A model generated the notes under the pieces. The model was not told where the DNA came from and searched no databases. It was given only the letters and a program-made list of their open reading frames with translations. Below, in pieces: positions 1-44,992 of a DNA stretch of 64,000 nt. Each line of letters opens with the position of its first letter. Positions within the stretch are counted from its first letter, which is position 1. The position numbers and the translations under genes are program-made. Origin of the DNA: Gracilariopsis chorda (taxonomy: Eukaryota > Rhodophyta > Florideophyceae > Gracilariales > Gracilariaceae); contig NBIV01000207.1 in the NCBI GenBank assembly GCA_003194525.1, positions 1 to 64,000 on the forward strand, written 5' to 3'.

Positions 1-299
1 TGCGTCACCAGAGCCTGGGCCACCGTGAGAGCGGTTATCCTCCGAAGAGGGACAGTCCGTACCAGCTTAGAAAAGCGGTCGGTAATGACAAGTAGAAACT
101 TGTTTCCACGTTTCGTGGTGAGTAATGGTCCGAGAATATCGATCGCAATAAACTCGAGCGGCGCCCTTGCGGGGAATAGTTTCATCTTCTTCGCATTTTT
201 TGCGGAGTTTGACGCGATTCTTCGCGCATTCGCTACAAAACCGCACAGTTGCGTAGCAATCCACCGCCATTGCGGGCCAATAGAAATCCCTTCGCAGGG
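1..299 (-). pseudogene. gypsy integrase, zinc-binding domain and start of catalytic core (partial)
   Basis: Translation of the minus strand gives the second half of the HHCC zinc domain (CSECAKN is the CX2C pair; the histidines lie in the preceding frame near 330-360) and then the start of the core, with the first catalytic Asp in IDILGPL and the following KFLLVITDRFSK typical of gypsy integrases. These pieces lie in more than one frame, with a stop after the GGNST segment at about 300, so the copy is broken. The remaining catalytic Asp and Glu would lie beyond base 1. Confidence 0.85.
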
Positions 300-1548
300 T
301 TAGGTAGAGTTTCCTCCCACCTGGGTGACCTCCAATGGGGCGTAGTGTGATATATGTAACACCCGCGATTGCAGGGAATGTGGTACCACAATCTGTGGGC
401 GGGCTTCGACCTTTCTTACGAGGTAGCCTTTGTCGTTTACCCCGAAAGGGAGATCTTCACCACCGTTGATACGGGCACGAATTCTCGTACAGAATGGGTC
501 GCCGAATTGTTCTCGGATCATTTCTTCCGGTGATACCGGTACAAAGTTTCCCGGTAACGGGTTCTCAGATTTATCTCGCGATGCGAGTAGTTCGTCAAAA
601 TCAGCATCCTCGTCCCAGGTTTCTGGCCTAGCCTCGACGGCATGTTCCGGATCATCCGGGTCTATAGCCATGAAGCATGGGACTTCATCATCCTCCGTTG
701 GGAGTGCTTCCCCACTTGTGGCTAACCGCGATAAAGCGTCGGCCTGAGTGTTCTGCGCACCCTTTTTATAAATGACTTGAAAGTCATATTCCGCGAGGCG
801 GAGTCTCCAGCGCATGAGGCGTCCCGACGGGTCGGAGATATTCATCAACCACCTCAATGAGGAATGATCCGTGTACACGGTGAAGTGAATTCCCATAAGG
901 TAGGGGCGCAGAGTGGTCATCGCCCATACGACGGCGAGGCACTCTTTCTCCGATACGGAGTAGTTCCGCTCATGAACATTGAGCGAACGTGACCAATAAC
1001 TAATTGGATGTCGTTCCCCCTCGGGGGTGGTTTGAAAAAGAGCACACCCGACTTGGTAGTCGCTCGAGTCCGTATCTACGGAGTATGGCAACCCAAGTTT
1101 TGGGAGATGTAGGATTGGTGCTGATGTGACAGCCTCCTTTAAGGAGTTAAAAGCTTCCGATTGCTCGGGCGTAAATGTTCCCAGTTTTGGGGGGTTCCCC
1201 TTTCGCAACAACGCGTTCAGGGGCGCTGCAGTATCCGAAAAGTTCGGGATAAACCGTCGATAGACGTTGACCAGCCCCAGAAAGGAGCGCAGTTCCGTTT
1301 GAGTACGGGGTTCTTTCGCCTCAACGAGGGATTTGACTCGAGCTTTCTCGATCGCTAACCGTCCAGGACGGATAATGTGACCCAGATACTTCACAGTATC
1401 TGTGAAAAACTCGCATTTCCTCAACTTGAGGGTAATTCCCGCATGACGGAGTACGGTCAGCACGTCTCGGACGTGAGTGAGATGGTCGTCCAACGAGTTG
1501 GAGAAGATGATAATATCATCAAGGTAGACCAGACAACTCCGCCACTTT
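300..1548 (-). CDS. gypsy reverse transcriptase thumb/connection and RNase H
   Basis: An open frame of about 400 codons. It begins with the catalytic YLDD box of reverse transcriptase (VYLDDIIIFS, read from about 1530), then the KLRKCEFF...LGH connection, the SFLGLVNVYRRFIPNFS thumb motif, RNase H with the acidic residues in DTDSSDYQVG, EKECLAVVWA and YTDHSSLRW, and the closing DALSR motif. It then runs into the integrase linker and LHISH. The frame differs from the upstream RT palm (1519-2052) by one base near 1545, so the two form one gene broken by an indel. The track-style start at 1493 is not a real start. Confidence 0.9.
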
Positions 1549-2052
1549 AAAGCGGTTGAGTAGAATATCTACTGCACGCTGAAAGGTGGCGGGGGCGTTG
1601 GTTAACCCAAATGGCATCCGCTTGAAGCGGTACGTTCCTGCATGGCAGGTGAATGCGGTTTTGTCGCGATCCTCCTGTCTGACAGGTACTTGCCAATATC
1701 CCCAATTGGCATCAAGGGCCGTGAACACGGTGGCGTCTCCAAGGGAGTCAATGCACTCGTCCATACGAGGGATGGGGTACGTGTCCCTAACAGTCACTGC
1801 ATTGAGCCGGCGGTAGTCGACACAGAACCTCCAGGTTCCGTCAGCCTTTAAAGCCAGTACAACTGGGGATGCCCAGGGCGATTGAGCGGGCTCAATCACA
1901 CCTGCGCGGAGCATCTTGTCCACCTGGGACTGCTCCTCTTCCCGAGCTTTCGGACCTGCCCTGTAAGGGGGTTGTGCAACCGGTCGCGCACCGGGGATTA
2001 AATCGATCCGGTGTTCCGTTGCATCAATCTCGCCAAGCGAGCCATCCCACAT
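1519..2052 (-). CDS. gypsy reverse transcriptase palm/fingers
   Basis: Contains the conserved RT series in order: EEEQSQVDKMLRAGVIEPAQSPWASPVV, FCVDYRRLNAVT, the first catalytic Asp in FTALDANWGYWQV, and MPFGLTNAPATFQ. It ends at a frameshift just before the YLDD box, which is found intact in the next frame. It joins the protease-RT linker to the right by another shift near 2050. Together with 300-1548 it forms one pol gene. The frameshift lies within the enzyme core, so it is inactivating (or a sequence error) rather than a programmed site. Confidence 0.9.
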   Translation of the reverse strand: MWDGSLGEIDATEHRIDLIPGARPVAQPPYRAGPKAREEEQSQVDKMLRAGVIEPAQSPWASPVVLALKADGTWRFCVDYRRLNAVTVRDTYPIPRMDECIDSLGDATVFTALDANWGYWQVPVRQEDRDKTAFTCHAGTYRFKRMPFGLTNAPATFQRAVDILLNRFKVAELSGLP

Positions 2053-2716
2053 TGTGGTGAATTCCGTAACATAGTACGGAGTTTGTCGCGGTGCGACTCT
2101 GGCACGTGGCTGAAGTCCAGCGCTTCAAGTGCTTTTTCCGGATCAATCCGGTCATTGCTCGATGGAGCATTGTCCTGTGGAACAGGTGTGGTTCGCAATT
2201 CCGAGTTACTCGGTATGTTCGACGCTGAAGTAGCGGTTTCCTCCCCCTCCTTAGACTTGACGTCTTCGGACGGCGGGGTGAACTCCTCAGAAGAGTTGGT
2301 AACTCCGAGTACATCGGCGGCTGTCATCTTCGTTGGCAGCATTCCCATAGGATGGGGGGTTACACTCCCAATTACTTGGTGTTTGACCAGATACTCGGGG
2401 TGCTTGCCAAGGTTGGCAACCAATATCCGGAAAGGAACATCCGGGGAAATGGAGACAATTCCATTAGCCAGCGCCAGCTGGGATTTCTCGTACAACGAGG
2501 CGAGGGGTTGTATAACCCGAAGACCGTGTTGACGGGAATTTACCTGTACCCAGACTTGGGACTCAGCCGGTATAGAAACCGAGGCAGCGACGCGGAGCTT
2601 GGTGGACTCGCGGGACGCGGGCGGTGGTTCCTGCGCAGCAGGGAGCGGAACTTGTTTCCGAGAGGACCGCTTTAGCGGGCGGCGAACAATCGGAACCGAC
2701 GATCCGTCGTCAAGTT
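2053..2716 (-). pseudogene. gypsy pol linker between protease and RT
   Basis: The stretch between the protease frame (ends 2717) and the RT frame is coding-like in two frames: the best piece is 2495-1998, 165 residues, rich in Ser, Pro and acidic residues, and it ends with DFSHVPESHRDKL, the usual helical segment before gypsy RT. Frames change near 2500 and 2050. No enzymatic motif is expected here. Moderately sure of the role from position alone. Confidence 0.7.
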
Positions 2717-3241
2717 CTACACGCCTGAGGCGGGCCTGATTGCGTCGACAAATCTGTCGCAGTAATCACATCCCAGTATGACTGGTGCTGCCAGTGAACG
2801 GCAAACGATGAAGTCCAACTTCACCACAGATGTACCAAGTCTCACGACGAGGTCCACTGTGCCCACCGTTTGTAACGGATTGTTGTTCGCATCCGAAATG
2901 TCGGGGACCGCGTCAGAGCGGATACGCGACCGCACAAGCGGGGGTAACAATGATTCCACGACAAAGTTGGGGCCTGCACCTGTATCCAGGACGGTGAGAA
3001 ACCTCACCATAAACTGGGGGTCAAGGCCAAGGTCGGCATAGACTTTATAATTGCGCTTGGCCAAGACCAAGACTCTACCGGGAATCCGGGGATTTTTACT
3101 CCGTATCCACGGGCGACGCAACACACCGAGGTGCGCAGAGTCCGCGTCAGCGGTGTCTTTCCTCGAGAGGACTTTCACCGGGGAGCGAGGCGAGGACGCC
3201 TCGGGCGCCAACAGCCTCTTGTCTGAGGACGCCTCTCCCAA
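2717..3241 (-). CDS. gypsy retropepsin (aspartic protease)
   Basis: A 174-residue frame with the retropepsin active site VLDTGAGPNFV and a flap/C-terminal segment VILGCDYCDRFVDAI. It processes the Gag-Pol polyprotein in the virus-like particle. It lies in a different frame from gag, whose stop is at 3259-3261, about 18 bases upstream, so Gag-Pol would need a shift or re-initiation, common in this superfamily. The listed start is a TTG and probably not real. A frame break at about 2717 separates it from the linker and RT. Confidence 0.88.
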   Translation of the reverse strand: MGEASSDKRLLAPEASSPRSPVKVLSRKDTADADSAHLGVLRRPWIRSKNPRIPGRVLVLAKRNYKVYADLGLDPQFMVRFLTVLDTGAGPNFVVESLLPPLVRSRIRSDAVPDISDANNNPLQTVGTVDLVVRLGTSVVKLDFIVCRSLAAPVILGCDYCDRFVDAIRPASGV

Positions 3242-3258
3242 AGGGGAGACTCCCTCAG

Positions 3259-5432
3259 TTAGTTTTCCGCCTTCGGCGGTGGGTTGGTTTCCTCGACAAC
3301 GAGTGCTTCATCCCGTTGACGGGGGTTTCTATCCGCATAAGCGGGGGTTGCAACGGATGGTTGCGTGATCTCCCGAATCGGGGTGTATGAAGCTTGCCGC
3401 GCACGCGGGGTCTGTGGTAGGGCGTGAGAAAAGTCCGTTTTAGCACGGAGGTAGGAAGCCGTCGGGACGGAACGTTTCTCCTCTGGAGTGAGGGCCTCAT
3501 AATTTGCCACCACCTTGGCCATATCCTTCAGTGAACAAATACACTGAGGAGAGGTATGGCCTTGGGCATAGCACAGGTGGCAAATGAGAGCCAGCACCGC
3601 GACACGCGGATTATTATTCCGAGTATCGGAGAAGCGAACCGCAGGGCGGGTGTCAGTCCATCCAGGCCGTTGATAACGGGATTGACCGTTTGAAAACGGG
3701 AGTCGTTGGGGTTGAACCCGACTGTTACCACCGTATAGAACGGGATCTTCTGTTCCCGTATCATGGGTCATCTCCGTCGTTGACGGTAACTCACTGGTGG
3801 GTATCGACACACCATCCCCCTGCGCTAAATGCACGGTATCAAATCCCTGTCCAGGGTTCCCATCCGCGGTGAGCGGGAGAGAGGAAGCTTCGCTTTCCAG
3901 CAACAACGCCTTGGCGGATTTAGACCGATTGTTCGGAGTTCTTGCACGAAGTGCATCCCCTTCCGCTCGAGCGTGTTGGACCAGCTCGAGGTAGGTGATC
4001 CTTCGCTTGTCCTCCCGATAACGGGTAACTAAACTCCGGATTGCCGGGTCAAGACCATCAATGAACATGGTACTGCGCTCCCCAGCGGGGTATACGTTAC
4101 CACATCTGTGGAAATCCTTGTTAAGGTGCACCGAGTAATCGGTCTCGGTCTCTCCAGCACGCTGGCGTGTATCTCGCAAAGCGAGGATAGCCTGCTGAAT
4201 AGCGGTGTTGGTGGCGTAGGAGCGCAGAAGACACTGCACAGCCTCCGGCCAGCAAGTAACTCCTCCCTCGGAGGCGCGAGAAGATCCTCGGACAGAGGTG
4301 TATTGGTCCTCGGCCACTCCCCGTAAGAAATACGGTAAAGCCAAATAGGCTTTTCCCTCATTCATACCGAGGATATCGGCCTCCGCTACAAAGCGGGATA
4401 GGAAATCCAGTACTAGGACTGGGTCCTCTCCAGTAAAATACTGGTTGCGGAGCGAGAGCTGCATTCGCTTAATGCATTCTCGCACCTTTCCCGTACCACG
4501 GGGCGTACGTCCAAGTGACGAATCTTCAAGCCGGTAGTACCGGTATGATAAAAGCTTCCGGTAATCCGGGTTTGTCGGTTTCAATTCCCGGAGACCGGGG
4601 TGTCTTCTCCCCTTCTGGCGGGTTCGGACCACACCTTCAGTGGCCGATGACCGCTTCGAGCGGGAGGAGTAGCCTCGCTTCTCGTCCTCCGAGTCGGAGT
4701 CCGAGGAGCTCGAGCTAACCGAATGGTTTCGGGGTGAGTCCGACGATGTCGAAGAATCGGAGTCCGAATATTTTCGGTGATGTTTCCGTCGGTGACGGCG
4801 TTTCTTCTTCCCAGCAAGCTGGTCGTTGTGCGATGCCTCGTTTACCGGATCACCCGGGGATGGTTTGTCCATGAGGACGAACTGCTCCAGCGTCTCCAGG
4901 CGAGCACTAATCCGATCAAATCGGGCTTCAACTCCTTCGATGAAGGCGGCGGGTTGTCCCAAACTCTCCAACACGGAGTTGACGTCAGACCGTAAAATAC
5001 GGAGCTCCTCGGCGACCTCCTTTACGGGGGTTGCCGAGACCACCTCTTGGAGGGATTTTAGTTCCCCTACAAGGGTGTCATGGGCGGTCCACAGAGCGCG
5101 GACCTGGGATTCCAGGGAAGTCCCCTGGGGGGTGTTATCACCCGTTCCACGGGGGCTTGAAGCCGCGACAGCGGGAGCAGGCCGGGGTGCCTGGGGCACT
5201 GCGGCAACAGCCGGAGTCGATGCTGCATTCCCCTGCGGGGTGATAACGAGGGCAAAAGGAGGTTCCGGGGTTCCCGGTCGGGGGTATCATTCCGTGATGA
5301 AGCTGCGCCAGCACGGCTGGAACTTGTCCGTATAGGGATACGGGGTGCGAACCGAACTTCGGAACAGTCCGCGTTGTCGCGGGAGCGACTACGCGTAACC
5401 ACTGGCTCCGCGTCGGAGGGATTTCTCGACAT
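3259..5432 (-). CDS. gypsy Gag with one CCHC zinc knuckle
   Basis: The long open frame runs 5199-3259 (646 residues). It has an Ala/Pro-rich start, a helical capsid-like middle, a Ser/Arg-rich stretch, and one perfect CX2CX4HX4C knuckle (CHLCYAQGHTSPQC) about 100 residues before the end. There is no ATG in this frame before an upstream stop at about 5292. The only good start is the ATG at 5432-5430 in another frame, whose RSRSRD-type product would join by a one-base shift near 5250-5290. I therefore place the original start at 5432 and infer a frameshift. Gag forms the particle and binds the RNA genome. Confidence 0.88.
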
Positions 5433-5512
5433 GAGAAAATACCGTTACGACGGGAAACGATCACGGAACTTCCGGTGAATGAAAACAAACCTCGTAAGAG
5501 GGAAAACAAAAA

Positions 5513-5534
5513 CCGATTCTAGGTCGGGAGACCA
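5513..5534 (-). promoter_or_regulatory. primer binding site matching a tRNA 3' end
   Basis: On the plus strand this reads CCGATT-CTAGG-TCGGGAG-A-CCA, exactly the layout of a tRNA 3' end: end of T loop, 3' T-stem half, 3' acceptor half, discriminator and CCA. On the element strand it therefore begins TGGTCTCCCGACC, as a primer binding site should, three bases from the LTR end TG/CA. The tRNA would have a 5' acceptor half CTCCCGA; which amino acid it carries I cannot say. Confidence 0.8.
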
Positions 5535-5537
5535 CTT

Positions 5538-6360
5538 TGTGGTGCAATGCCCCAAAGGGGAAAAACACCGAAAGACGTCCGGGATCTTCCTCTCACGAGG
5601 TGAACCCAGTTGGGTAGAGCCCTCCCAGAGGTGTCACGGCGAAGCCGGTTTGTAAGACCAGGGACACCTGTCGCGACTCGCGCAGGGAGGTGAAGGCGAA
5701 GAATCGGTATCCGCGTGAGCGGGGTGTGATCCTCAGTAGAGGTATGTTTCCACGTAAGTGGGGGTGTGTGAGCGGATGCGCACACGAGGGCCGCGGATAG
5801 CGGGAGGTGCTACCCTAAAAAGGGGAAAGAGGAAGGACGAGTGGGTCGCGAGAGCGACGAGTAGATACGGCAATGCCGGTGGACAGGACTCCCTATACAG
5901 GGCGAAACACCAATATGATTGGAACAATTAGTACTCCCAATGATGGGTCTCCTTTAGATGTGCAAGGGGGGTGAACTTCCGTACACTACGGTGCTTCCCT
6001 CCAAGGAGGAGTTGAGAACACGCGGAGGCGGTAAAGCTCAGAGCCAATTCCCCAGGTTGGGGTCCCTTGTTGGGGAAGGTTTACTGGTGCGACGGCAGTG
6101 CGCCGTCGCACTAAGTACTAGCTTCCCAGAAATGGGTGTGAAAATAATAAATAAAATTAACTAAAATACTCCACATTCCGTGGCAACATCCACTACTGTG
6201 GCCAACCGCCAATTGACCCAAAACCGTGTCCCACGTGTCTATACCCACCATTGTGGGGCGTAGTTCATATACACACTACACAACCGATAATATCGGGAAA
6301 GCGTTCAAGTACCCAGAATCCCTCCCTGAGGGCGTTGCACTTCAAACAGATGGAGCCATT
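5538..6360 (-). repeat. 5' LTR of the hairpin-rich gypsy element
   Basis: The inner end TG is three bases from the primer binding site. The sequence aligns along most of its length with 41834-42650; shared anchors are ACACCGAAAGACGT (5565 and 41861) and CCCTCCAAGGAGGAG (about 5997 and 42283). The homology begins at the same TG in both copies, which fixes this edge. The far end, somewhere in 6330-6400, is not fixed. It is packed with short hairpins, and a longer one at about 6090-6114 has a stem of about 10 bp. Confidence 0.82.
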
Positions 6361-9794: not shown

Positions 9795-10591
9795 TTGAGC
9801 TCACAGATAACAAACCAATCGATTACCGTGCAAGGCGCCTCTCACCACTTCATAACGACCTCGTCAAAGAAGAAATTGAGAACTTTTGAAGACAGGTATC
9901 ATACGCCCGCCACCGCAGCATGGTCTTTCCCTATTGTGATAGCCACTAAAAAAGATGGCAACCCACGATTCTGCGTGGACTACCGAACTCTCAATGCCAG
10001 GATTAAGGCTGATAGATGGGCTCTCCCGAAGATTGAAGAGATATTCGACGACCTAGCAGGAGCCAACATCCTCACAACACTAGAACTTTTCTCCGGATGT
10101 TGGCAGGTTCGGGTATCAGAGAACTGTAAGGACGCTGCTACCTTTGTTTGCAAATTTGGGACCTACAAATTCGAAGTAATGCCGTTCGGGCTAATGAACA
10201 CGCCAGCTACAATGGGTTGAAATTGAAAGTGGCAAAGTATAGTTTCCCCCAGTCCAGAGTCAAACTACTAGGACACATTGTGGACAAGTCAGGAGTTCAT
10301 GTAGACCTAGAGAAAATCGCAGCCATACAGAAGCCTCCAAGCCCTTCTTCTACAGCGGACCCTCGAAGCCTTCTTGGCTTAGTGGGGTACTACAGAAGAT
10401 TCATTCCAACCTTCGCTGAACTGTCAGGCATTATTCATGAAGCCACATCGTCAAAGAGGAAATTATGTTGGACACCGGAAATGCAGGATGCATTTGACCA
10501 TCTTAAATACAAAATGACATCACCTCCGGTGTTTGCATTCACAGACTTTAATCAACATTTCATAGTAGAGACCGATCCCTCATCGATATAA
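9795..10591 (+). pseudogene. gypsy 2 reverse transcriptase remnant lacking the YxDD box
   Basis: Palm motifs are clear: VIATKKDGNPRFCVDYRTLN, LEIFSG-type motif here LELFSGCWQV (the catalytic Asp is Glu), and VMPFGLMNTPAT. The frame then stops at 10217 and the next recognised segment is LKLKVAKYSFPQSRVKLLGH, followed by SLLGLVGYYRRFIPTFAEL. About 60 residues that should lie between, including the YxDD catalytic box, are absent, so this copy has an internal deletion besides point damage. Confidence 0.88.
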
Positions 10592-11159
10592 CTGGGCATC
10601 GTACTATCACAAAAGAAGGACGATGGGAAGATGCACCCTATTCAATATGCTAGCCGCACTATGAACGACGCTGAACGAAGGTACTCCGCATGTGAAAGGG
10701 AAGCTCTGGCGGTAGTCTTTGCTCTGAAGAGGCTAAGGATATATCTTGTCATCGATGCCCTTCAGGCTGATCATCGATCACCAAGCATTAAAGTATGCCT
10801 TTAAGAAGAAGGATATCCACGGTATACTAGCAAGGTGGATGGATCTTCTGGCCGAGTATGACTTTAAGATTCAATACCGACCCGGTAATAGTAATCAGGC
10901 GGCGGAATACCTTTCTAGGCTGGATATAACAGGAACGATGTCAAAAGAGGAACTAAGCCTATTCGTGCAAAATTCCAGTCTGGGAGATGACCTCGAAAGA
11001 GACCTAATAGGAACCACGGCTTTTCTTTCTGGCATGGATATGGAACTAGAAGACGTGCAGGAAAGACGCACCATTAAGAGAAATGCAAAAGGGTTTATAG
11101 TCTCGAATGGAAGCCTCATGAGGAAAACCCCGAAAGGACTGCGATCGATCCCCTTCTGA
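10592..11159 (+). pseudogene. gypsy 2 RNase H remnant and integrase linker
   Basis: After a stop at 10589-10591 the frame continues with LGIVLSQKKDDGKMHPIQYASR, ERRYSACEREALAVVFALKRLR, then after a shift near 10745 the RLIIDHQALKYAF and ARWMDLLAEYDFKIQYRPGN motifs and LSRLD. The first RNase H Asp pair lies just before the stop in VETDPSS. Linker to the integrase runs to 11159. Confidence 0.85.
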
Positions 11160-12205
11160 CATGACAGAAAAACGGTATTACGAGCTTGCCATGACTATAT
11201 CGGTCGTTGGGGAATAGACTCTACAAGGAACTTTTGTTGTGGAAAGGTACTGGTGGCCAAAGTTATATCGTGACGTCATGGACTATGTGAAGAGTTGTGA
11301 TGGGTGTCAGCGAGCAGTAGGCATTCCAGCCTATAAAAGTGGCCTTACGTTTCCATTGACTGGGCTCTTTCATGCGTTTTCCATGGCCTTTGCGGGACCA
11401 CTACCTAGGTCCAAAAAAGAAAACCGATTCATATTAGTATATGTGGAACACCTAACGAGATAGCCGACTGCTCAGGCCACTGTAACGGCTACGACCCAAG
11501 TAGTTATAAAATTCATACGCGAAGAGATCATACAGCCATTCGGTTTTCCCATGCTCATTTTATCTGATAATGCATCCTGCTTCTGGGCTAAAGCACTGCT
11601 CGAATTCATGAAATAAAAGGGTATCCTGTGGAAGATGGTGCTGTCTTATGCGCCTATGTCAAATGGGAGGACAGAAAGAATGTTCGGGACCTCGAAAGGG
11701 GCCGTGGCCAAAGAAGTTATCCAGAGAGGTGAAGAGTGGGTCTTCGTTTCACCAATAGTACTCTATGGATATGGGAGACGCCAGATAGTAGATGCCAAGT
11801 CCGCATTTGAGCTGCTATACGGAACAGCACCACGAATGAGCAACTACGAGCCCGAAGCACTTGTTGCCAACTACAGTGATAAGCACAGCAGACTAGAGCT
11901 GATGGACGCAGAAAGAGGTATAGAAACTCGTGCCCTACGCCAGGAAGAAGTTCAGCGTGACGAAAGGCGAGTAATTCGCTTCAAAGTACGTGACGAAATG
12001 CTCGTAGCAAAAAGGAAAAGCATTCAACTCCAAGAAGAAGTGGGCTCCATTTGAGTACACGTTCTACGGCCCCTGTCTAGGAATAAGAGCATCGCGCCCA
12101 CGCTATGTTCTAAGTACCCCACATCGAAGGGTGTCCAGGGAAACTATACATGCCAGACGGCTGGTGTTGTACTATCGACGACCTGCTCATCTGCAGAAAT
12201 AGAGT
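11160..12205 (+). pseudogene. gypsy 2 integrase remnant
   Basis: The zinc-binding half is in YWWPKLYRDVMDYVKSCDGCQ (CX2C); the core follows with FAGPLPRSKKENRFILVYVEHLTR where the first catalytic Asp is replaced (FAGP for the usual D-x-xGP). After a stop at 11461-11463 the core resumes with ILSDNASCFWAKA (second Asp) and SYAPMSNGRTERM (the Glu). The C-terminal domain, in another frame, has YTFYGPCLGI and IHARRLVLYY and ends at about 12201. Confidence 0.85.
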
Positions 12206-19478: not shown

Positions 19479-19739
19479 AGCCGAAAGAGTCAGCTGGGAG
19501 TGGTCAGCAAAGGGAACAGCGTGCTCGTTTCATGCGTCCTTATATCGTTGTGGCGATAACGCAGGTGGTCCCAGAGAAGTACATGCATGTGGGTTGGATG
19601 GGCATGCAGACATATGAGTGATTTTGATCGTGCAGTATCACGCATGCTATGGTACGTATTACTACCACTCTATCCTCAGCTAATGAAATAAATATCCACA
19701 TTCACAATTGATTTTCGAATGGTACCAAAACATTCAGAT

Positions 19740-21060
19740 TATTGATTGCTGGTTTTTCGAAATCATTCGTACATGAAGCGTGGCCGTAGATGTACAAGTG
19801 GCACGCTGATGATAGACGGAAGCAAAGGTAAGCTGTTACTCGGCTTCGATTTTATCGCCTGTGCGAAGTACCTAAATCAATCTTGCGGTTTTACCCCGTT
19901 CGGTCTTGTTATACTCACTCGCACGGTGTCAACTAGAACTGCTGATCTTGCTTACCCCGTGGGTTTGTCCATTGCTCACTGTTCTTACCGTATTGGTTAC
20001 TCCTTTTGTGGGAGGAAATAGCCATTCGACTCAGTGTTGAGTTTTGCTGTGCTGACTGATAAGAAACATCTCCACCACCGGGTCTCTTTGGGGTTTCCGC
20101 TCGACCTTCCGGTTGTAACTCTTGCCTTGGGTCATTCCCACTTTTCCACTTTTGGACACCCCTTCCACAGATCTATGCACGACGTTGAATAGATGGTAAC
20201 CCGCTTCTCGGTAACAGCTCCATCGGTATACACGGAAGGCACGTCTTACACCCCAACATCGTGTGGTACAGAGGGCTTCGTTGCTGTGCCTCGCTTGCAA
20301 AAGAGCAAGGCTCCAAACACCTGGAAAGGATCCCTGGCATAAGAATATTCCTCCATACCCAGTTTACGTCAAAGTTCTTTCAAGACCTCCGTCATATTCT
20401 CGAGGTTCGAAACATGTTCGTCACAAAATATCACCCGCAGGGCAAATGACAAATGGAATGATTTAAGGGTACGATGCTGGACGCATTAGATTGCTAGATT
20501 GCATGTCATCCCAAAGAGTGGGGTCGGTATACTGATGTAATTACGTATGCCTATAATACACAGGTACAGTTACGTCGTTTCAACTCTTGAGTTGGTGCTG
20601 TTGCGACGCTCACCCCCAGTCGTCGCTCTTACTACTAGTGGTGCTCTGGTAAGGCATCACAGGCCTAGCAGGACTTGATGTCGACTGCTAGACAATTTGA
20701 TGGTAAGTTACAATAAAGATGATTTCCACTAGTTGCGTTTACTGAGAGCTAAGAGGGGCGCCACTTACAGGTCACCTACATTGACATGAAAGGTCATTAG
20801 TCCCTTTTCAAGGGTCGTATTCACTTAGCACGCGCATTTGCGTGTGTGCTGGCAAACTGAGCCCTTTCGACGGTCATGGAGTGCTGCCAAAGGCCAAGAC
20901 CATTGCTTCTCTTCATCACTCAATCGTCTCTGAAAAGATGAGGTGCGCAATAGGTAGATTGTTAAATAAGAAAGACTGGAACAGAGTGTATGAAAGGCCT
21001 AGACGTCAAACACGCCCTGCTTGTTACGAAAAACCCATTGATTGATCGGATGGCTCATTA
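19740..21060 (+). pseudogene. gypsy integrase remnant (copy A), core to C-terminal domain
   Basis: At 20363-20450 the frame reads FTSKFFQDLRHIL then VTKYHPQG, the integrase core around the second Asp and the Glu region (the usual SDRD before FTSKF is degraded to FLHT). It continues in other frames with QMEWFKGTMLDAL, WGRYTDVITYAYN, and at 20842-21045 with AGKLSPFDG and a basic tail YERPRRQTRP, the C-terminal domain of gypsy integrases. 19820-20340 upstream is degenerate and has a paralogue at 28.5-29.1 kb. No chromodomain was found here. Confidence 0.75.
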
Positions 21061-21500
21061 CACCAGTAGCTAGAAACCTTTTTAAAGCCGTGCAGGGTTT
21101 CGGGTTGCTCAACCCATCTGCTGGGTTCTATTCTCGGCTGATGCGTCAAATACCAGAAATGTCCAATCATTGGTATGCTTCTTGTGGGGCGTTATCGTCA
21201 GTCATGATTCGTTTTCTGTCATAATGGAGTTCTTGACGAGGGTATCAAAAGCGATTTGCTGTCAGTTAGCAAGCATAACTTAACCTTCCGCTTCACAATG
21301 TTCTGCAAGTCATAACGAATTACATATGCAGCATCCAAACCATTGGCTTACGCATATATCTACGCTTCTTCCACGCTGCGGACAACTCCTTTTGACGTGT
21401 ATGAGAGATATTGAAGAATATTACAACGGCTGTTATTGTCGCATAGCGTCACAATGTAGTGTAGTTGCGATGATAGATCTGATTGTTAGCCAAAGACGAA
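21061..21500. other. no recognisable feature
   Basis: Between the gypsy remnant and the copia element; short frames only. May contain the 3' LTR of either element. Confidence 0.4.
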
Positions 21501-21517
21501 TCTACGTAAACCAAAGT

Positions 21518-22420: not shown

Positions 22421-22760
22421 GACTACCTTCCATGTTACCTTTCTTATGAGGCCCTCGATCTATTTCCTTTTACCAGGGAGCGCTACTGGGTCTGCATTGC
22501 GAGAGTCATTGAAAGTGATGAGTTCGGTAATGTGGATATCGGGGTAGAGAGGTGGGGTTCATGCGACTGGGGTACGAGGGAGAAGCACTGAACCGAAAGG
22601 GAGCCAGTTGATTTCGCAGTGCCCTAGTGGCATGGTTGTCACTAAACACGGGAAAAAAATGCAGCGAGAAATATTGTAATGGACTAGACGATCATCGTTC
22701 CCGACATAAATGTCCTTGTTAATCACACGGGGAACGGTGTTATTGCCAAAGAAGTCTTTA

Positions 22761-26081: not shown

Positions 26082-26354
26082 CCAAATTAACGGTCATATC
26101 GGATTAACTGTTTCAAGAAGAGGAGTCATGATGATAAAGAACACTTCGAAGTGGAGAATGCAGAAGAAACATGAAGAAAGAAGTACGAAGAACCAAAAGT
26201 TTGGTGTAATCCAGAAAATATCGCAAGATTGATCACTGATAAGTTAAGGTCAGAGTACTGAGTACAAATCATCCCGACGCAAAGCCTGCACCAGAGTGAC
26301 TGGTGGAATGAAAATAGTTTGCTGCAGCGAGAGCCAAGAGCTGTCCAAAAACTA

Positions 26355-32000: not shown

Positions 32001-32390
32001 GGAATTGTTGTATTAATTCTTTCGTAACCTCTTTTGCGCAGGCACTTTTACTTCGTTTGTAATATTTCCAATGAAGGAAAGACCTTTCGGAGTGCTGTTG
32101 TTGAAGAGCACGGTCTATGAGAGCGGTATTTGGGGACATGGTTCTTTTCCCGGATCCTTTTCCCGGATCAATCCGGCTTGTCTCATCTATGAGTATGTAT
32201 GAGAAATGGTTAGGCGGAGCTACGGGTAATACACGTGGGTCACGGAGGTGTGTGTAATGCTGACCACCTAGGTGGGTAGATAGGAGCTGCCTATCTATAT
32301 ATTTTGTTATTTACTGTAGATATTTTTAATAGAGGCTATAGTACTTTAGTGTGCCAGCTTCGCTGCCACCGCATCAGTAATCTCCAAACC
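29096..32390. other. unassigned 3.3 kb
   Basis: Only short frames (for example plus 30778-30984, plus 31443-31679 with a hydrophobic stretch, minus 30793-31128). No domain, repeat array or RNA gene is recognised. Base composition is AT-rich like other debris stretches here. Confidence 0.45.
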
Positions 32391-33010
32391 AAGGACTTGG
32401 CTCTGAACTCTACACCTACGATGTTTGTCAACTCCTCCGTGAGGGATGCCCCCCATTGGTAGTTTATCCGCCTTGCTCATCCATAGGAACCCATTATGGG
32501 GAGTATTAATACCAGTAATTATCGCGTTGGACCTTGTATAAGGAAAACCGCTGGCTTTGTCGATATTATGCCTAGTTATTCTTGTGACTCGCCTCTATTC
32601 TTCCCCTTTTCCATTTTTCCCCCTTTGGGTGCTACATCCGCCACTCATGTGGATTGCACTGGCCCTTGGGCCGCACTCCCCAGTTCGTATGCGATCCACC
32701 TTTTACGAGGGTATACACCTGCACACATCGTGGGATCATTTCTTTGCACATCTCTGCCCACGTGGAGACGGGGTCGGCCTCGGTCTTACACCCGATCTTG
32801 TAGTGCTTTTTCCTTGAAAATGTCCTACTATTGGTACGCCTCTAAGAGAGGAAGAACCCTAACGTCTTCGCGGTATGTCCCTGCTCGCGGTTATTGCACT
32901 ACAGTTGTATGTAGATGCTGAGAAAAATGGGCATACATATTGTAGGTGGAATTGCCATCATTCTCTGTTCAGCGATGTGAACATAACTTCCGGACGTTGG
33001 ACGGGAAAGG
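32391..33010 (+). repeat. gypsy remnant, copy C, with hairpins
   Basis: Contains hairpins CCTCCGTGAGG, CCCATTATGGG, CCACTCATGTGG, GGCCCTTGGGCC and CCTCTAAGAGAGG between 32434 and 32870. The segment around 32785-32910 resembles copy B at about 28947-29060 (GGTCTTACACCCGA versus GGTTTTACACCCGA; GGTTATTGC(A/T)C). Fragment of the same retroelement family. Confidence 0.55.
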
Positions 33011-38899: not shown

Positions 38900-41833
38900 A
38901 GTCCTAGGAGTTTGAAATTGCACGCCACAGAGAATTCCATCTACATCCATTATGTATTCCAACCTCGCTTGTGCATCCCACACACTTGAAGGCTCAAATG
39001 GTTTTGGCAGCACGTCTGGGCGTGCTTCTATGCTTCAAAACCTTAGATGAATTCCACAAACTCCAACAGCTCTTCTTCAGCCCCGGTTATGTTCTTATGC
39101 ACAACTGTAATTTGCAAAGAGGACCACAATAAGATGAGTGGGGCCCCGCCGTTTGCCCTTGTGATGGCCGCAAATAACGCAATGCAACATTTCACCTTGT
39201 GTTAGCACATGACCAGAGGTACCCAAAAGAACCTTCATGGCATCAGAACTATTAAAAACAGCATTCGTTTTCTCTTCCTCGCTTGCCCTATGGCAATTAG
39301 TCTTGCAGCTTTGGTTTCGGGGAGCGACTTGTTTTCTTCAACAGCATCTTGTCCTTCTTTAACTGTCAACGATTTAGCATAGCATAGAAGGGTTTTTCAC
39401 AGGTCGTGCATAAAATCTGAGGTGGCTTGAACCTTGTTTTAAGGATTTCTGTAGTTTTCAATAGGCGTAAAAGTTTTTTCACACTCCAATAATTCTTTTC
39501 GCTGAAACATTCGCCAGGAAAAGAAAGCGTTCATTGCAATCTTTTTGGGAGTCTGCGACACAATCGTTTGTTCCCACTTAAGCATTGACGTAGAGCTGCG
39601 CAGTATCGCTCTCTGCTGTATGGCTTCATCCGGTACCGCTTTGCTTTAGAATAATAAGATTGCGCAGCATGCTTAAGCAGTTTGAGCGGCAAAATTGCTC
39701 CGTTCTCCTTGATATGGTCATCAACAATGGGCCAAAAGTCCAGCTGCATCGTGGTCATAGATTCCAATGCTGTAGAAAAAAGAGAAGAGTAACTGCTTTT
39801 TCTCTGTAAGCCCCGGCAACAAGAGGTGCAGCGAGAGACTTAATAGTCTCATAACAACTCAATTGCACCTCGGTGGGACAAATAATTACAACGATGTTTC
39901 GGCGGTTGCAATGTAGACCAAACAGCTGAGACCAAGCACCAAATCTGGTGCACAATCTGAGCCATGTGCTCCCTGGGAACGTAAGTTTGAAACTGGGCAT
40001 TTCCACGTTCGCACTGTATAGACCCGGATGTAGATAACGTGATGCTCTGAACGAGCGATGACGCAGCCACAAGCGTTTTGATTTCGTCTGTGGCACAGAC
40101 GAGAGTACTGTCAGAACCATAGACTGCAGCTGCATCAAAACCCGCAGCGGAACTGAAGATTGGCAAGGTGGCTTTGTTGAGTAGCACTATGACGTCCGGA
40201 GAGCACGCAAGGTAGGAGGCGTCTTTCTGGGACAGCAATATGGCCTCGAAACCGTCTTCTAAAAATGGAAGAGCACGCAATGCCGCAAGCACAGCGTTCT
40301 AGTTTGCTGTCCCACGCATCATGGCCTCTGTAGACCTTTTCGATGAAAACCATCCGTCATACATGAGCTTGAACTACTCCCCTAATGTCTTCTTTTGACG
40401 AAAATCAACAATCCCCAGTGCAGATTGTGCCATTTCGCTGCAAAGCAGCATCAAGCCAGCGTTAATGCCAGTCACCCTAAACTGATGAAGCACAAACAAA
40501 TCTCCGCATCTTTTTCCAACGGTTACACGCACAAAAACGTTTGCAATCACCTGTTTCAAAATTTCTTTTGAGATCCGAAACTTGCTCTCCTTCAATATTT
40601 CGTCTAGTGTAAAAAACGTTGCTCAGTAAATAGTATGATTTGGCAACAGCTATCCAAGTGTTTTAACGTTTTTGTAAAGAAGTTGGAACAATGTACATAA
40701 ACCGTAGAACCTTTTCAAACTTCTCCGATTCTTGTTCACGAACAGCCACTGCACTTATGTTCTTCTGCCCGAAAACCGTTGCACCCGACGCTCCAACATT
40801 CTTCGCGGCTTAAAAAGCCTACGTTCTAAGCTGTGGGATATCACCGAAGCCTCGCCGTCGCTCCAAGTGAACGCTGGAAACAATGCCACTATCTCCGTTT
40901 TCGCAGCCCTCTGCAGCGAGGACATCCGCAGTCATCTCGTCCATCTCCTGCCCTTCCTCAAGATCACCCCTGCTGGGGTTGAGATACGAGAAGGCAACAA
41001 ATGGGTGAACGCAAAGTAGGTGGTTGGGCATTCCAAATACTGAGCTGAAGCCGAACTCAGTCAAAATTTCAATACAAGAACCCTTACCGTGACCTCTGTC
41101 CGCCGTAACTATGCAAGAGTTAGTCGCGCCTTCCCGGCTACCTTCTACTAGCGTCTCAAACAAGCGACGAACTGAATCAAGTTGTGATTCTTCTCGACGT
41201 CTGAGACTCAAGGCGAGCACAATTCGGGACAGTACATCAGCCAATGAGTCTGTAGAATGTCCCTTCTTGTCTGCTTTTATCACGCTTAGCACCTTAACTT
41301 GATTGTTTAATTGCCGTTGGCATGAATACCGTAAAGACCGTCATCCAAAGTAGCACGGAGATGAAGCGGGATAACAAACACTTTCTTCGTGTCCCTAAAT
41401 GATAGCAGCTCGAATTACCCCAGCTGTTGCGTTTCGTCTTGTTGCGAGTTCCATTCTATCTGCCCATCTTTTCCACGCCCCGTAGTGGAGAATGAAAGTA
41501 TTTTGCTTAAAATAAACCGAATCTTCTCGAGAGAGGGTGTGCCACTGCCAGATTGTCGGATTACATCAAGCTTGCAGAAACAAAACCCAGTTGTCTGAGA
41601 CAGCAGCAGTACAGCAACGTAGTGGTACTTTTCGGAAATCTTAATGGCGTCATTAGAGAGCTCCCGCAGCCTGATGAACTCATTAAGCATTTCTTTGAGC
41701 TGTAATAGGAAGAGATTCATGAACAAGATTACTAATCTACCCCTTGTCGGTGCAATGTCCCACACGACGCACTCTACCTTAATCTCGGCAACTGCTGTTT
41801 GGCCCAAAATTCTTGCGCGCTCATGTACAACTT
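38900..41833 (-). pseudogene. transposase fused to a YqaJ-type PD-(D/E)XK nuclease (pseudogene)
   Basis: Right to left: 41864-41415, charged N-terminal part; 41292-40819, a 157-residue frame with CIVTADRGHGKG and SSVFGMPNHLLCVHPFV, the pattern of a DDE transposase strand with catalytic Asp; 40595-40374, a segment with FVLHQFRVTGINAGLMLL; 40292-39849, ALPFLEDGFEAILLSQKD, ACSPDVIVLL and DEIKTLVAASS, i.e. Asp then Glu-x-Lys of a PD-(D/E)XK nuclease, then PREHMAQIVHQIWCL, as in lambda-exonuclease/YqaJ proteins; 39240-39100, HCVICGHH, a Cys/His tail. Frames are broken by stops. Related fusions probably exist in algae or oomycetes (memory, unverified). Confidence 0.7.
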
Positions 41834-42650
41834 TGTATTGCAATGCACGGAAGTGGGAGTACACCGAAAGACGTTCGGTACCTTTCCTCGTTAGAGGTGA
41901 GACCAGTTGGGTCGAGCTCTTCCAAGAGTGGCACGACTATGTCGGGTTGTAAGGCCGAGGCCACCCGTCTCGACTTGTGCACGGAGGTTGAAGCAAGAAT
42001 CGGGTATCCGCAGGAGCAGTATATGGGAGTGATCTTCCTCTAGAGAGGTGAGGTTTCCACGTTAGTGGCGCTCGCCAACACGAGCTGTGAGTAGCGGGAA
42101 AGCCACCATATCAAGGGAAAAATAAGGGGGAGCTGAGTCACGAGTGTCGTGACGACCACTAATGGCAGTGCCCGTAAATGAACCTCATACGACGAACACC
42201 AAGACAGTTCGAATAACAATCCGAATACTGAAGTCCTTTAGATAGGCAAGGGGGTTAGACATTACGTATGCGACAGTGCATCCCTCCAAGGAGGAGTAGA
42301 GAACACGCGAAGGCGGTGAGGTCTAGAGCCCACTCCCCAGAGTGGGGTGCCTTGTTGGGAACTTTTAACTGCTACGACGGCAAGTCGCCGGCGAGCTAAG
42401 TACTAACCATTTCCGGCAGGCGTAAAACGGTCCAACTTCCGAGAACACGGGAAGTGCCTTGCATCGGCCGTTTCGATGTCCAGCGTCCTCTGAGTGTTCT
42501 CAGTTAACTCTCCTGATAGTTTGCGGTCAATTACAGTGCCAGATCTTCACGAAAGAGTGGTTTTCCCACCAGTCCACCAGACGAGTACCGAGGTCAAAGC
42601 GGTATCCAACGCGTAACACATATAACTCCCGAACCAGCATAGTTAACACT
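41834..42650 (-). repeat. 3' LTR copy related to 5538-6360
   Basis: Aligns over at least 41840-42410 with 5544-6112 and more weakly beyond. Stems are often kept while loops differ: CCCCA-GAG-TGGGG at 42335-42347 versus CCCCA-GGT-TGGGG at 6050-6062. The hairpin at 42137-42153 has an A-T pair where the one at 5845-5858 has G-C. The right edge is uncertain. Confidence 0.78.
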
Positions 42651-43387
42651 TAAAAACCTCTTCTGCATGATACTGAGACCCAGGTCTATCGATCTAGCCC
42701 CTGCAAGTCAAGTACAGAATAAACGCCAAAAAGTGGGGGAAGCAAGACCCGCTCGGTAGGGCTTGGTCAAAACCAGTCGAACTGGAAAAGGGCCATAACT
42801 TTGGCATGAGCTAAGATAATCAAAATATATCTTCATGGAGCTACTGGGATAGACTTCAAAAGATTGTGTACGAAGTTGTTGTGAAAACGGAAAGCGGACG
42901 ACCGAGTTAGCCAATTTTCGGAAGAACCCGTTGATACGGTACTCTAGGGGTGAGATTTCCGATGTCGGGTAGGTGTGACCGTAGCGAAACGGAAAGAGCC
43001 ACGCTCCCACAGTACTGTACGGGTTGTGTGCCCAGCAGCAGAGTATGGAACCGTTCAATTCCGGATCGACATCCATCACAGATGGTCAGTGGTGTAGATC
43101 GAAAAACGCAATCCTTGAAAACGTGGTGCGCACGAAAACAGCACACCATCGTTGATGGGAAAAACCATACAAGCAAGGTGCCCGGATGGCAAACCAGCTT
43201 GCTGGATGAAAACTCATCGGTGGTTATATTCCGAAAATTGAATGCCTTGGCGGCAGCAGATCACGTCTGTGTAGCCGCAATCTGTGGGAGCTACCCAATT
43301 GAGAGCGATCCCAATCCTGATTTCTCTCATCCGTCACGACGGCCTATCCCACTTGGGCGTCACACAGCGTTGCTGGCGTAGCGGTTC

Positions 43388-43684
43388 CTACGCGGTAGGG
43401 ATATTGTACCACCTTCGAACAGGGGAGGTGTTCGATGGGTTCCATGGTGTCCCGGTTGGGTCATATCCGTACCAACGGACGCGGTAACTTAGAATACCTT
43501 CCTGATTCCAGGTATGCCCAATGATTCCGCGAATCAAAAACTTTTGTTTGTATAATTGCTGGCCTCGCTGTATTATGGTGACAAAGATTGTAAGAGTTTG
43601 CCCATGGGACGGGATATTTTCCATCAGGGGTGCGCCTGAATGCAACTTGACGGCTTCGCTCGGAGGATGCAGCGCAGAGTGCAA
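43388..43684 (-). pseudogene. chromodomain at the C-terminus of a gypsy integrase
   Basis: A 98-residue frame whose second half is KFLIRGIIGHTWNQEG then SYRVRWYGYDPTG and TPWNPSNTSPVRRWYN, the three-strand plus helix pattern of a chromodomain (usual form YLVKWKGY...TWEP..NL). In chromoviruses this domain follows integrase and steers insertion to particular chromatin. The integrase core itself is not found upstream (44.3 kb side). Two of the usual aromatic-cage positions appear to be kept (Y, W), but I could not align them rigorously. Confidence 0.75.
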
Positions 43685-43705
43685 ATAATATCCCTCCAGA
43701 GGGTG

Positions 43706-44992
43706 TCTTAGAGGAACCGTGCCAGGTACCGCGGTACTTGGGTCGTGCTGCTAGTTTGCAGGGGTCATCCGTCCCATCTTGACGGCCCTCTGGTCAAACC
43801 GCGAGCTTGCAGGCATCTTGCCGCTTTGGCGGAGTTGCGGAGGTGATCCCCTGGTGGGGCTTTCCGTGTAGCTTAGTGGTTGGTGCGGGGCACACAATCT
43901 CCGTGCATTCACGTGACTCCCACGACATGTGGTTCTGAACCACCTCCTTGCATTCCGCCTAGCTTGAATTGGGCCCTAGACTGTCCGGCTGAGCCGTGCA
44001 CTGCTGTGTTGGCACCCGGTCTCCGGCAGTTACTTCCGGTGCTCCGTTGTGTTTTCTCAAAATCCCTGATGAGGCATGGAAAGCTGGCGCCGTGGACACC
44101 CTGTACGAGGACTTTGCCTCTAATTGAGGTTTAATGTCTTCCTTAAGAGGTGCATCATCCGGTACTACTGGTTTAACCATGGCGACGATGCCGAAGTATT
44201 CCGAGACGATCGGTGTACTACCGCGATTGCACAGAGACTTCAGCACTTCGATCTCCGAAGTTCGGACAACATTCCAGTTATGAATTGTTCTCAAGGCCAG
44301 GGCTGTAGAGCCAGGAACGTGAGTTGCAAGAGGTGAATTCCTGCTTTCCTCCCTCGAGAGGCATCCACTTCTGTTTCATTAAGAAGGGTCCCGAAGGACA
44401 ACTCGCGCCGAAATGTAAGTATGGGTACCGAATTGCAGCAAGCATAAAACAGAACTTCAGTGATATGTATGCCAACGTGCAGACGTTCTTTATCTCACTC
44501 GGGAAAGTGCGCACTTGCAATCCCACTGTGGTTGGCGATGACGAAGTCGTTTTTATGGCAGTCGCCACTCACCTTGAGCACACAAACAGAATGGAATACG
44601 ACTGTGTGCAATAGGTTAGATGTGAACACTGCGGTAGAGTTGCGTTGCGATTCTAGTCCGGTAATTGTGCAGAGAATTAGAGCAATAGAAATATCCAATT
44701 AGCATTGAGCACTTGGTCAGAAACGTTTCATTAGAGAAGCGAATAGAGTCATCGGGTAGGGATGCTCTAAACCGGCACTGTTTCGAGCTGGCCGATTTTA
44801 AAAATGTGGTCCAGCTTGGGAGTTTGATTGTATCAGAGAAAAAGGGGATTTGTTGATGGTTTCATCATGTAGTGAGTTGTATTTGAATATGGTATCCCGA
44901 GCAGCGTCTTCCCAGTATGTCTCGTCGAGCCTCACTGTGTGCAACAATGCTCTGACTGATTCCATGATCGTGCAGTTTAGCTGCTTCGCGAT
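43706..44992. other. unassigned stretch
   Basis: Hairpins continue (GTACCGCGGTAC, a perfect 12-bp palindrome at 43726-43737; CCGCTTTGGCGG; CCCCTGGTGGGG) until about 43.9 kb. Frames at 43959-44294 (minus) and 44324-44614 (plus) are open but unrecognised. The plus frame has DPTVVGDDEVV-like acidic text and a following CEHCGR in another frame; no family assigned. Confidence 0.35.

What the first reader, a model, noticed from the sequence alone, without database searches (positions are those of the whole stretch)
1..6360. Retrotransposon saturated with short hairpins at about 20-bp spacing, in coding and LTR alike
Seen directly. In the LTR, perfect hairpins lie at 5845-5858, 5868-5878, 5891-5902, 5910-5922, 5936-5947, 5979-5991 and 5998-6009; centres are 18-26 bp apart, with one gap of two periods. 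In gag they lie at 3292-3303, 3312-3323, 3333-3344, 3351-3363, 3372-3382, 3397-3408, 3434-3449 and 3459-3470. In RT they lie at 1618-1630, 1637-1649, 1674-1686, 1692-1710, 1719-1730, 1737-1747 and 1756-1769. Stems are 4-6 bp, loops 1-7 nt, sequences all different. Spacing near two helical turns, and presence in both protein-coding and non-coding parts, are not explained by codon use. Possibilities (inference): a genome-wide structured RNA for packaging or silencing escape, phased cruciform/protein sites, or a replication mechanism that makes quasi-palindromes. I know of no description of this.
Basis: seen in the sequence. Interest (0 to 1): 0.95.

Follow-up and report, generated by a model that had tools for sequence, protein, structure and literature searches.

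The report
Retrotransposons built from tiny hairpins
A family of jumping genes, probably from a red alga, carries hundreds of tiny perfect hairpins, often about 20 letters apart, along its whole length; related families share the trait and have kept it while their letters changed, which points to a function not yet known.

Summary
All 22 named hairpins are perfect inverted repeats. In window 1-6344 they follow a rule: C-G closing pair (usually CC...GG), 4-5 bp stem, 3-4 nt loop. There are 158, 24.9/kb against 2.9 in dinucleotide shuffles (z 38); the rest of the window, two related remnants apart, is near chance. Codon-preserving shuffles do not explain it. The element is a Ty3/gypsy LTR retrotransposon with a C-terminal chromodomain. 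Five of five sampled sister families share the trait; four of four sampled outgroup gypsy families do not. Hairpin positions are conserved between families, with compensatory changes, and substitutions between two lineages rebuild hairpins beyond chance. Recent private variants mostly destroy them, so selection, not a palindrome-making process, is the better account. G-U pairs are no better tolerated than other mismatches. Spacing of about 20-25 nt is preferred but only short-range. Best mechanism (inferred): a structure-read array of dispersed cis signals for packaging or replicating the element. Ten literature searches listed no description.

The parts
5540..6344 (-). LTR (5' LTR of the minus-strand element), with 23 rule hairpins (28.6/kb)
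   Evidence: LTR pairs of sister copies (e.g. L048 1096-1902 = L011 8759-9565, 99.6%) mapped to the window by 99% match to L011; hairpins
5445..5539 (-). leader between LTR and gag, 3 hairpins starting in it (the last ends at 5542)
   Evidence: position relative to LTR and gag
3262..5444 (-). gag, 57 hairpins (26.1/kb); the reading frame is interrupted near the N terminus in this copy
   Evidence: tblastn of sister-copy gag: residues 99-728 at 5151-3262 and 1-61 at 5444-5262; homologs in Agarophyton chilense; hairpins
1..3307 (-). pol (N-terminal part, RT, RNase H, start of integrase), cut by the contig start and split over several frames in this copy; 75 hairpins in 1-3261 (23.0/kb)
   Evidence: RVT_1, RT_RNaseH, RT_RNaseH_2; tblastn segments; sister copy L011 carries a 1875-aa pol with integrase and a C-terminal chromodomain; hairpins
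1..6344 (.). array of 158 hairpins: C-G closed, stem/loop 4/4 (60), 5/3 (52), 4/3 (30), 5/4 (16); 118 of 158 are CC...GG
   Evidence: 24.9/kb v 2.9 in 60 shuffles, z 38
41827..44186 (-). degraded relative: LTR fragments (75-80% DNA) and pol C-terminus with chromodomain; 41800-44200 has 10.8 hairpins/kb v 2.4
32161..32904 (.). about 745-bp dispersed repeat, probably a solo LTR of a hairpin-clade element; the 32100-32900 stretch has 13.7 hairpins/kb v 1.7
   Evidence: identity as solo LTR inferred

Best explanation
SHOWN: one clade of chromodomain Ty3/gypsy LTR retrotransposons carries, from LTR to LTR, an array of minimal perfect hairpins of fixed geometry (C-G closing pair, usually CC...GG; 4-5 Watson-Crick pairs; 3-4 nt loop) with a preferred neighbour spacing of 20-25 nt. 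The letters of stem and loop are largely free, geometry and many positions are conserved across families, and substitutions are compensated more than by chance, which points to natural selection on base pairing. INFERRED: each hairpin is a weak, sequence-independent recognition unit read structurally on the single-stranded element nucleic acid (genomic RNA, or the cDNA made from it) by an element-encoded protein, most simply Gag through its zinc knuckle and basic region. Many weak units act together so that the element's own nucleic acid is selected, condensed and packaged in the particle. The 20-25 nt repeat would be the footprint of one protein subunit: a 12-13 nt hairpin plus an 8-10 nt linker.
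For: Enrichment along a sister copy (LTR 28.5, gag 25.8, pol parts 22.8-27.5, 3' end 21.6 per kb v 2.6-3.8 by shuffle), ending at the LTR edge in the window. Same trait in five of five sampled sister families at 47-58% gag identity (10.2-16.7/kb v 2.5-3.2), their gag and pol pieces above the mean of codon-preserving shuffles (z 2.8-10.3). Positions conserved: e.g. in pol 14 hairpins of A coincide with one of L054's 21, v 2.7 for shifted registers. Homologous places are perfectly paired in 17.8% (242 of 1358) v 1.05% shifted. Both-sided changes keep Watson-Crick pairing in 350 of 846 (gag) and 150 of 344 (pol) v 0.26 and 0.25. Lineages A and B, 24.5% diverged: given the same changed sites and base spectrum, 32 and 38 hairpins observed v 21.6 (sd 1.8, max 28) and 22.2 (sd 1.9, max 28) in 500 permutations. 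Physical-hairpin signature: complementarity stops where the loop would fall under 3 nt (CC-N8-GG inner pairs 0.64, 0.60, 0.25; CC-N9-GG 0.48, 0.53, 0.51). Strand-specific flanks: in A, 3' flank A 0.40 v 5' flank T 0.21, and 5' C exceeds 3' G in 7 of 7 sequences (shuffles 0.279 v 0.246), so one strand is probably read. Gag has a conserved CX2CX4HX4C (below Pfam's cut-off). [quoted passage not shown]
Against: No protein-hairpin contact was tested. G-U pairs are as rare as other mismatches (55 v 55.1 expected; G-U 23 v A-C 27 at homologous places, p 0.67), which a simple RNA hairpin signal would not predict. Sense and antisense fold equally well (z -1.10 v -1.09), and context pairing probability is modest (0.44). 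There is no strong loop consensus. In the most diverged A/B block stems are hardly more conserved than spacers (0.224 and 0.209 v 0.244), and double changes are mixed there: 9 of 12 keep pairing in one direction, 2 of 10 in the other. A window remnant with a 56%-identical integrase fragment and a chromodomain (20360-25951) shows no array.
Confidence: 0.4

Rival explanations
1. The hairpins matter as DNA: in single-stranded cDNA during reverse transcription (or in both DNA strands), where only Watson-Crick pairs count and 3-4 nt loops are compact; they would organise cDNA, RT/NC or integrase binding.
For: No excess of G-U or any one-mismatch frame (G-U 55 v 55.1, A-C 63 v 59.6, other 237 v 227, perfect 425 v 53); G-U v A-C 23:27 at homologous places; no sense/antisense difference in fold energy.
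Against: Stems of 4-5 bp with A-T inner pairs are barely stable in DNA (general knowledge); flanks are strand-asymmetric, which needs a single strand rather than dsDNA.
Confidence: 0.22
2. Silencing or surveillance escape: hairpins in sense RNA and in antisense small RNAs hinder siRNA guides of about 21 nt from annealing; needing both strands folded makes G-U useless.
For: Spacing of 20-25 nt is close to a small-RNA length; the trait covers each transcribed part; Watson-Crick only.
Against: Many gaps exceed 47 nt (41 of 157 centre distances), leaving targets without a hairpin; strand-specific flanks and the CC...GG closing rule are not needed for this; a G-U hairpin should still help half as much; small RNAs of this host were not examined.
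Confidence: 0.15
3. A mutational process (fold-back or template-switching reverse transcription) keeps writing perfect inverted repeats into the element; there is no function.
For: Perfect-or-absent pattern with no near-misses; letters free; copies are mosaics of lineages, so template switching between genomes seems to occur.
Against: 148 single private variants: 4 gains, 34 losses (2.7% and 23.0% v 3.1% and 18.0% for random mutations); 26 clusters: 1 gain, 6 losses; by mutation alone a steady density needs gains to equal losses (5 v 40 seen). Fixed geometry and conserved positions are not expected. Sampled outgroup gypsy elements lack the hairpins.
Confidence: 0.06
4. Genome-scale RNA folding for stability or compactness, as in GORS viruses, without specific recognition.
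For: Mean folding z below zero in all seven clade sequences (-1.11 to -0.30 sense) and near zero in two of three outgroup sequences tested; the third, L059, has -0.54.
Against: Inner pairs are at background G+C and G-U is not enriched, loops over 4 nt are hardly enriched, context pairing little better than chance hairpins, antisense equal to sense.
Confidence: 0.1

Closest known systems
Dispersed RNA packaging signals of ssRNA viruses (MS2, STNV, parechovirus, HBV; Twarock and Stockley)
   Same: Many weak, degenerate stem-loops spread over a genome, proposed to work together in cis in assembly (PMC6281560, abstract and section 5 read; STNV, parechovirus and HBV from the listing only).
   Different: Those share a recognition motif in loop or bulge (section 5 of PMC6281560: (x)xYA loop motif in MS2). 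Here there are about 25 per kb, of one narrow geometry, with largely free loop letters, a C-G/CC-GG base, Watson-Crick only, in a retrotransposon.
Genome-scale ordered RNA structure (GORS)
   Same: Structure spread over a whole genome and present in coding sequence beyond codon use (recalled; only a search listing seen).
   Different: Folding energy bias is small and equal on both strands; the signal is a mini-hairpin geometry in which G-U is not favoured.
Ty3/gypsy retrotransposons with a C-terminal chromodomain (chromoviruses)
   Same: LTRs, gag with zinc-knuckle motif, RT, RNase H, integrase, chromodomain.
   Different: The hairpin array; a long region without Pfam match between integrase core and chromodomain. 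The SHAPE study of yeast Ty3 RNA (PMC11381356, passages read) reports a well-folded core of about 20% of the RNA; no hairpin array appears in the passages I read.

Membership tests
Ty3/gypsy LTR retrotransposon with chromodomain | RT, RNase H, integrase, chromodomain in that order | tested here: met
   Pfam hits in L011 pol at 488-646, 712-841, 975-1146, 1811-1852
Ty3/gypsy LTR retrotransposon with chromodomain | paired LTRs | tested here: met
   807-826 bp LTR pairs at 98.5-99.8% in four of six copies examined; in the other two (L009, L015) the fetched pieces cover the pair only in part
Ty3/gypsy LTR retrotransposon with chromodomain | placement in the chromovirus branch by RT tree | not tested
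   no tree was built
Dispersed packaging signals | multiple stem-loops across coding and non-coding genome, selected | tested here: met
Dispersed packaging signals | shared recognition motif in loop or bulge | tested here: not met
   tri- and tetraloop letters near background except A 0.43 and G 0.09 at tetraloop position 3 of lineage A; the shared part is the C-G/CC-GG base
Dispersed packaging signals | binding by the capsid protein promotes assembly | not testable with these tools
   needs CLIP or in vitro assembly
GORS | genome-wide folding energy clearly below shuffled controls | tested here: inconclusive
   mean z per 100 nt -1.10 (A), -0.30 to -1.11 in the other six, outgroups 0.09, -0.54, -0.06, window 50-58 kb 0.06
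GORS | G-U pairs part of the structure | tested here: not met
   G-U 55 v 55.1 expected; that G-U is usual in such structures is recalled
dsDNA dyad sites of a dimeric protein | constant half-site sequence | tested here: not met
   inner arm letters near background composition yet complementary; only the outer CC/GG is constant

The most novel reading that the evidence does not exclude
A whole class of retrotransposons writes a sequence-free structural code over its entire genome: hundreds of Watson-Crick-only mini-hairpins, read by an element-encoded protein as one repeating unit, that marks the element's nucleic acid as self during packaging or cDNA synthesis. This would be a new kind of genome-wide cis signal, distinct from local packaging elements and from global RNA folding.
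Probability: 0.4. Interest if true: 0.95.

Novelty: categorically new. Interest (0 to 1): 0.88.

Why it matters
How LTR retrotransposons tell their own RNA from host RNA is still open; for yeast Ty3 the packaging sequences are 'not precisely defined' but include both UTRs and POL (PMC11381356, passages read). An array visible to the eye, conserved across families while its letters change, makes that directly testable by synonymous recoding. Whatever reads it, this is a strong case of selection on base pairing across a whole mobile element, with a Watson-Crick strictness that ordinary RNA-structure models do not predict. It also gives a simple signature (C-G closed 4/4 and 5/3 hairpins per kb) for finding such elements in other genomes.

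Tried and rejected
Chance, composition and codon use: rejected. Property of the whole window: rejected; 54,456 other window bases have 2.31 v 2.07 per kb (z 1.5); the whole genome was not scanned. Property of all gypsy elements: rejected for four of four outgroup families sampled, L058-L061 (C-G rule z -0.8, 1.2, 0.2, 0.6); one of them, L060, is raised by the broad stem>=5 count (8.9 v 5.3, z 3.0), and one sister family, L055, is only weakly raised by it (6.0 v 3.9, z 2.5). L055 pol merely equals the highest of 60 codon shuffles. Palindrome-making mutation: disfavoured. Protein dyads in dsDNA: rejected because arms co-vary with free letters and pairing stops at the loop limit. Strict 21-nt lattice: not supported beyond neighbours. 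Wobble as pointer to the folded strand: uninformative, no clear wobble on either strand; one search shows inner A-C 29 v 13.8 in lineage A, not seen when pooled. One search shows a twofold excess of stable one-G-U frames on the antisense strand (230 v 113); I put it down to the outer pair and flank letters, not to inner wobble, but did not test that separately. Reading-frame phase of hairpins: near uniform, a slight excess of one frame in pol (40/24/23). Relatives in viral contigs: none. DNA of the Agarophyton and metagenome relatives could not be obtained, so the trait was tested in one genome only. A broken element at window 20360-25951 (integrase fragment 52-56%, chromodomain 44%) has no array (19501-26500: 2.7 v 2.2); it is either an outgroup or a decayed relative, I cannot tell which. 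Gag structure: job accepted, not finished in seven collecting calls, so there is no fold evidence.

Dropped or partial: full-length comparisons used 8 of the 40 listed near-identical copies; sister families 5 of 55 listed places; outgroups 4 of 150 listed places. A-v-B pairs were left out for gag and altogether, where B was also not used as query; B and A both count against the other families, and B overlaps A in part, so these counts are not independent. Loop-closing pairs were left out of the mismatch counts. One search used private variants only at columns with at most 8 gaps and at least 24 agreeing rows, and the stem>=5 count.

Full report
WHAT IS THERE. Window 1-6344 is the right-hand two thirds of an LTR retrotransposon on the minus strand, cut by the contig start (the window is C207:1-64000). 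LTR 5540-6344, gag 3262-5444, pol from 3307 leftwards. In this copy gag and pol are split over several frames. Sister copy L011 shows a 728-aa gag frame and a 1875-aa pol frame with RT, RNase H, integrase and a C-terminal chromodomain. LTR pairs of 807-826 bp at 98.5-99.8% identity were seen in four of six copies examined. The genome has 91.3 Mb in 1081 contigs; the RT search listed 150 matches (3508 candidates, 150 scored). The gag relatives that bear a name are all from the red alga Agarophyton chilense; the host is therefore probably a red alga (inference).

THE OBSERVATION. All 22 named hairpins are perfect inverted repeats. Stem>=5 hairpins are about three times as frequent as in dinucleotide shuffles in 1-6000 and remain so against codon-preserving shuffles (gag z 9.9, pol z 13.7). 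Sorting by stem and loop in a sister copy shows what is really enriched: 5-bp stem with 3-nt loop 69 v 6.5, 4/4 89 v 23.3, 5/4 29 v 6.7, 4/3 50 v 23.2, with little beyond 5-nt loops. The closing pairs are C-G: among perfect 5-bp hairpins 94 have outer CC...GG against 3.6 expected, and 2 have GG...CC against 3.8. With that rule (C-G closed, 4-5 bp, 3-4 nt) the window element has 158 hairpins, 24.9/kb v 2.9 (z 38), and the rest of the window, apart from two related remnants, 2.31 v 2.07 (z 1.5).

A REAL HAIRPIN, NOT JUST A PALINDROME. In CC-N8-GG the first two inner pairs are complementary in 64% and 60% of cases and the third in 25%, which is chance; in CC-N9-GG the three inner pairs are at 48%, 53% and 51%. 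Pairing thus stops where the loop would fall below 3 nt, as in a folded single strand. The inner letters are near background composition, so the coupling is between partners, not to a fixed sequence.

CONSERVED IN A CLADE. A search with a distant gag relative listed 55 places of other families; five were fetched (L053-L057; gag 47-58%, pol 59-70% amino-acid identity). All five carry the hairpins (10.2-16.7/kb v 2.5-3.2, z 10.2-16.6), and their gag and pol pieces lie above the mean of codon-preserving shuffles (z 2.8-10.3; L055 pol only equals the highest of 60 shuffles). A second window remnant, 20360-25951, has an integrase fragment at 52-56% and a chromodomain at 44% identity and yet no array (2.7 v 2.2 over 19501-26500); whether it is an outgroup or a decayed relative is open. 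On codon alignments hairpin centres coincide more than in shifted registers in most comparisons (A v L054 gag 18 v 5.1, pol 14 v 2.7; A v L056 gag 9 v 3.2, pol 9 v 2.6), with satellites about 18-24 nt away; comparisons with L055 and L057 are weaker and some are at chance (e.g. gag A v L057, 3 v 2.3). At homologous places pairing is perfect in 242 of 1358 (17.8%) v 1.05% in shifted controls. Both-sided changes keep pairing in 350 of 846 and 150 of 344 v 0.26 and 0.25. Of 183 pair-matched hairpins between families 145 have identical stems; the others hold 41 two-sided changes, 26 transitions and 15 transversions (comparisons overlap, so these are not independent).

SELECTION, NOT A MUTATIONAL MACHINE. 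The family is a mosaic of two lineages that differ by about 24.5% in the integrase region. Both have dense hairpins there (38 and 32 by the rule). Keeping the changed sites and base spectrum but permuting the new letters gives 21.6 (sd 1.8, max 28 of 500) and 22.2 (sd 1.9, max 28), against 32 and 38 observed. Against my reading, stems in that block are hardly more conserved than spacers (0.224 and 0.209 v 0.244), and double changes keep pairing in 9 of 12 cases one way but 2 of 10 the other: individual hairpins come and go while the density stays. Among variants private to one copy (37 sequences, RT region) 34 of 148 single changes destroy and 4 create a hairpin, like random mutations (18.0% and 3.1%); of 26 clusters 6 destroy and 1 creates. 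If mutation alone held the density steady, gains should equal losses.

WATSON-CRICK ONLY. Pooled over the clade sequences, perfect frames are 425 v 53 expected, but frames with one inner mismatch are at chance whatever the mismatch: G-U 55 v 55.1, A-C 63 v 59.6, other 237 v 227. At homologous places single G-U and A-C are 23 and 27 (p 0.67). In lineage A alone, CC-closed frames show A-C 29 v 13.8 and G-U 17 v 12.1, a hint of the opposite strand that does not survive pooling. Sense and antisense fold equally well, yet flanks are strand-specific: in A and B the 3 nt after the hairpin are A-rich (0.40, 0.45) while the 3 nt before are not T-rich (0.21, 0.22), and 5' C exceeds 3' G in 7 of 7 sequences, more than in shuffles (0.279 v 0.246). 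So one strand probably matters, and the partner rule is stricter than RNA thermodynamics. Vienna context probabilities are modest (0.44 sense, 0.39 antisense; chance hairpins 0.24-0.44).

SPACING. Neighbour distances favour 16-26 nt (67 of 157). The pooled pair correlation has 57 v 26 at 20-21 nt (z 6.3), a trough at 28-37 and small second and third peaks; the periodogram is not beyond the range of random placements. A repeating unit of hairpin plus linker of about 21 nt fits; a rigid helical lattice is not shown.

MECHANISM. Shown: selected, largely position-conserved, structure-not-sequence hairpins over the whole element. Inferred: a protein reads them on single-stranded element nucleic acid. 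The narrow span, closing pairs and sharp loop limit look like a binding geometry rather than stability. Gag is the natural candidate: it has a conserved CX2CX4HX4C (below Pfam's cut-off) and a serine-rich and basic stretch (sequence), and dispersed packaging signals are an established idea in RNA viruses (PMC6281560, abstract and section 5 read). [quoted passage not shown] The lack of any G-U tolerance is the main point against a plain RNA reading and the reason I keep a cDNA reading as the chief rival.

LITERATURE. Ten searches listed nothing that describes such an array by title or abstract start; only open-licence PubMed Central papers are covered and most listed papers were not opened, so this is no proof of absence in print.

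Holding the report against the calls changed one count (clusters that lose a hairpin: 6, not 5), added the controls and weak cases named above, and led.

Noticed in passing
window 41827-44186: Degraded relative of the element: LTR fragments at 75-80% DNA identity and a pol C-terminus with chromodomain; still hairpin-rich (41800-44200: 10.8/kb v 2.4).
   Followed up: partly
window 32161-32904: About 745-bp dispersed repeat with 12 listed matches in the genome including itself (the others 71-88%), hairpin-rich (13.7/kb v 1.7), probably a solo LTR of the same clade.
   Followed up: partly
window 20360-25951: Broken element with an integrase fragment at 52-56% and a chromodomain at 44% identity to the hairpin element, without the array; its place in the clade is open.
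   Followed up: partly
L009-L016, about 2500-4000: The family is a mosaic of two lineages that alternate in the 3' half of pol: blocks near 99% next to blocks 24-30% diverged, pointing to recombination between packaged genomes.
   Followed up: partly
L011 pol residues about 1150-1810: A long region without Pfam match between the integrase core and the C-terminal chromodomain; it could be looked at for a nucleic-acid-binding fold.
   Followed up: no
L048 1-1090: Sequence just outside the left LTR of this copy is also hairpin-rich (21.1/kb v 3.0), probably an adjoining element of the same kind.
   Followed up: no
G000 C183:74551-127225: Row of about eleven gag-like matches of an outgroup gypsy family, mostly about 4.8 kb apart, as in a tandem array.
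   Followed up: no
window 9906-11874: Another gypsy pol (37-46% identity over RT/RNase H, 24% over integrase), without the hairpin array.
   Followed up: partly
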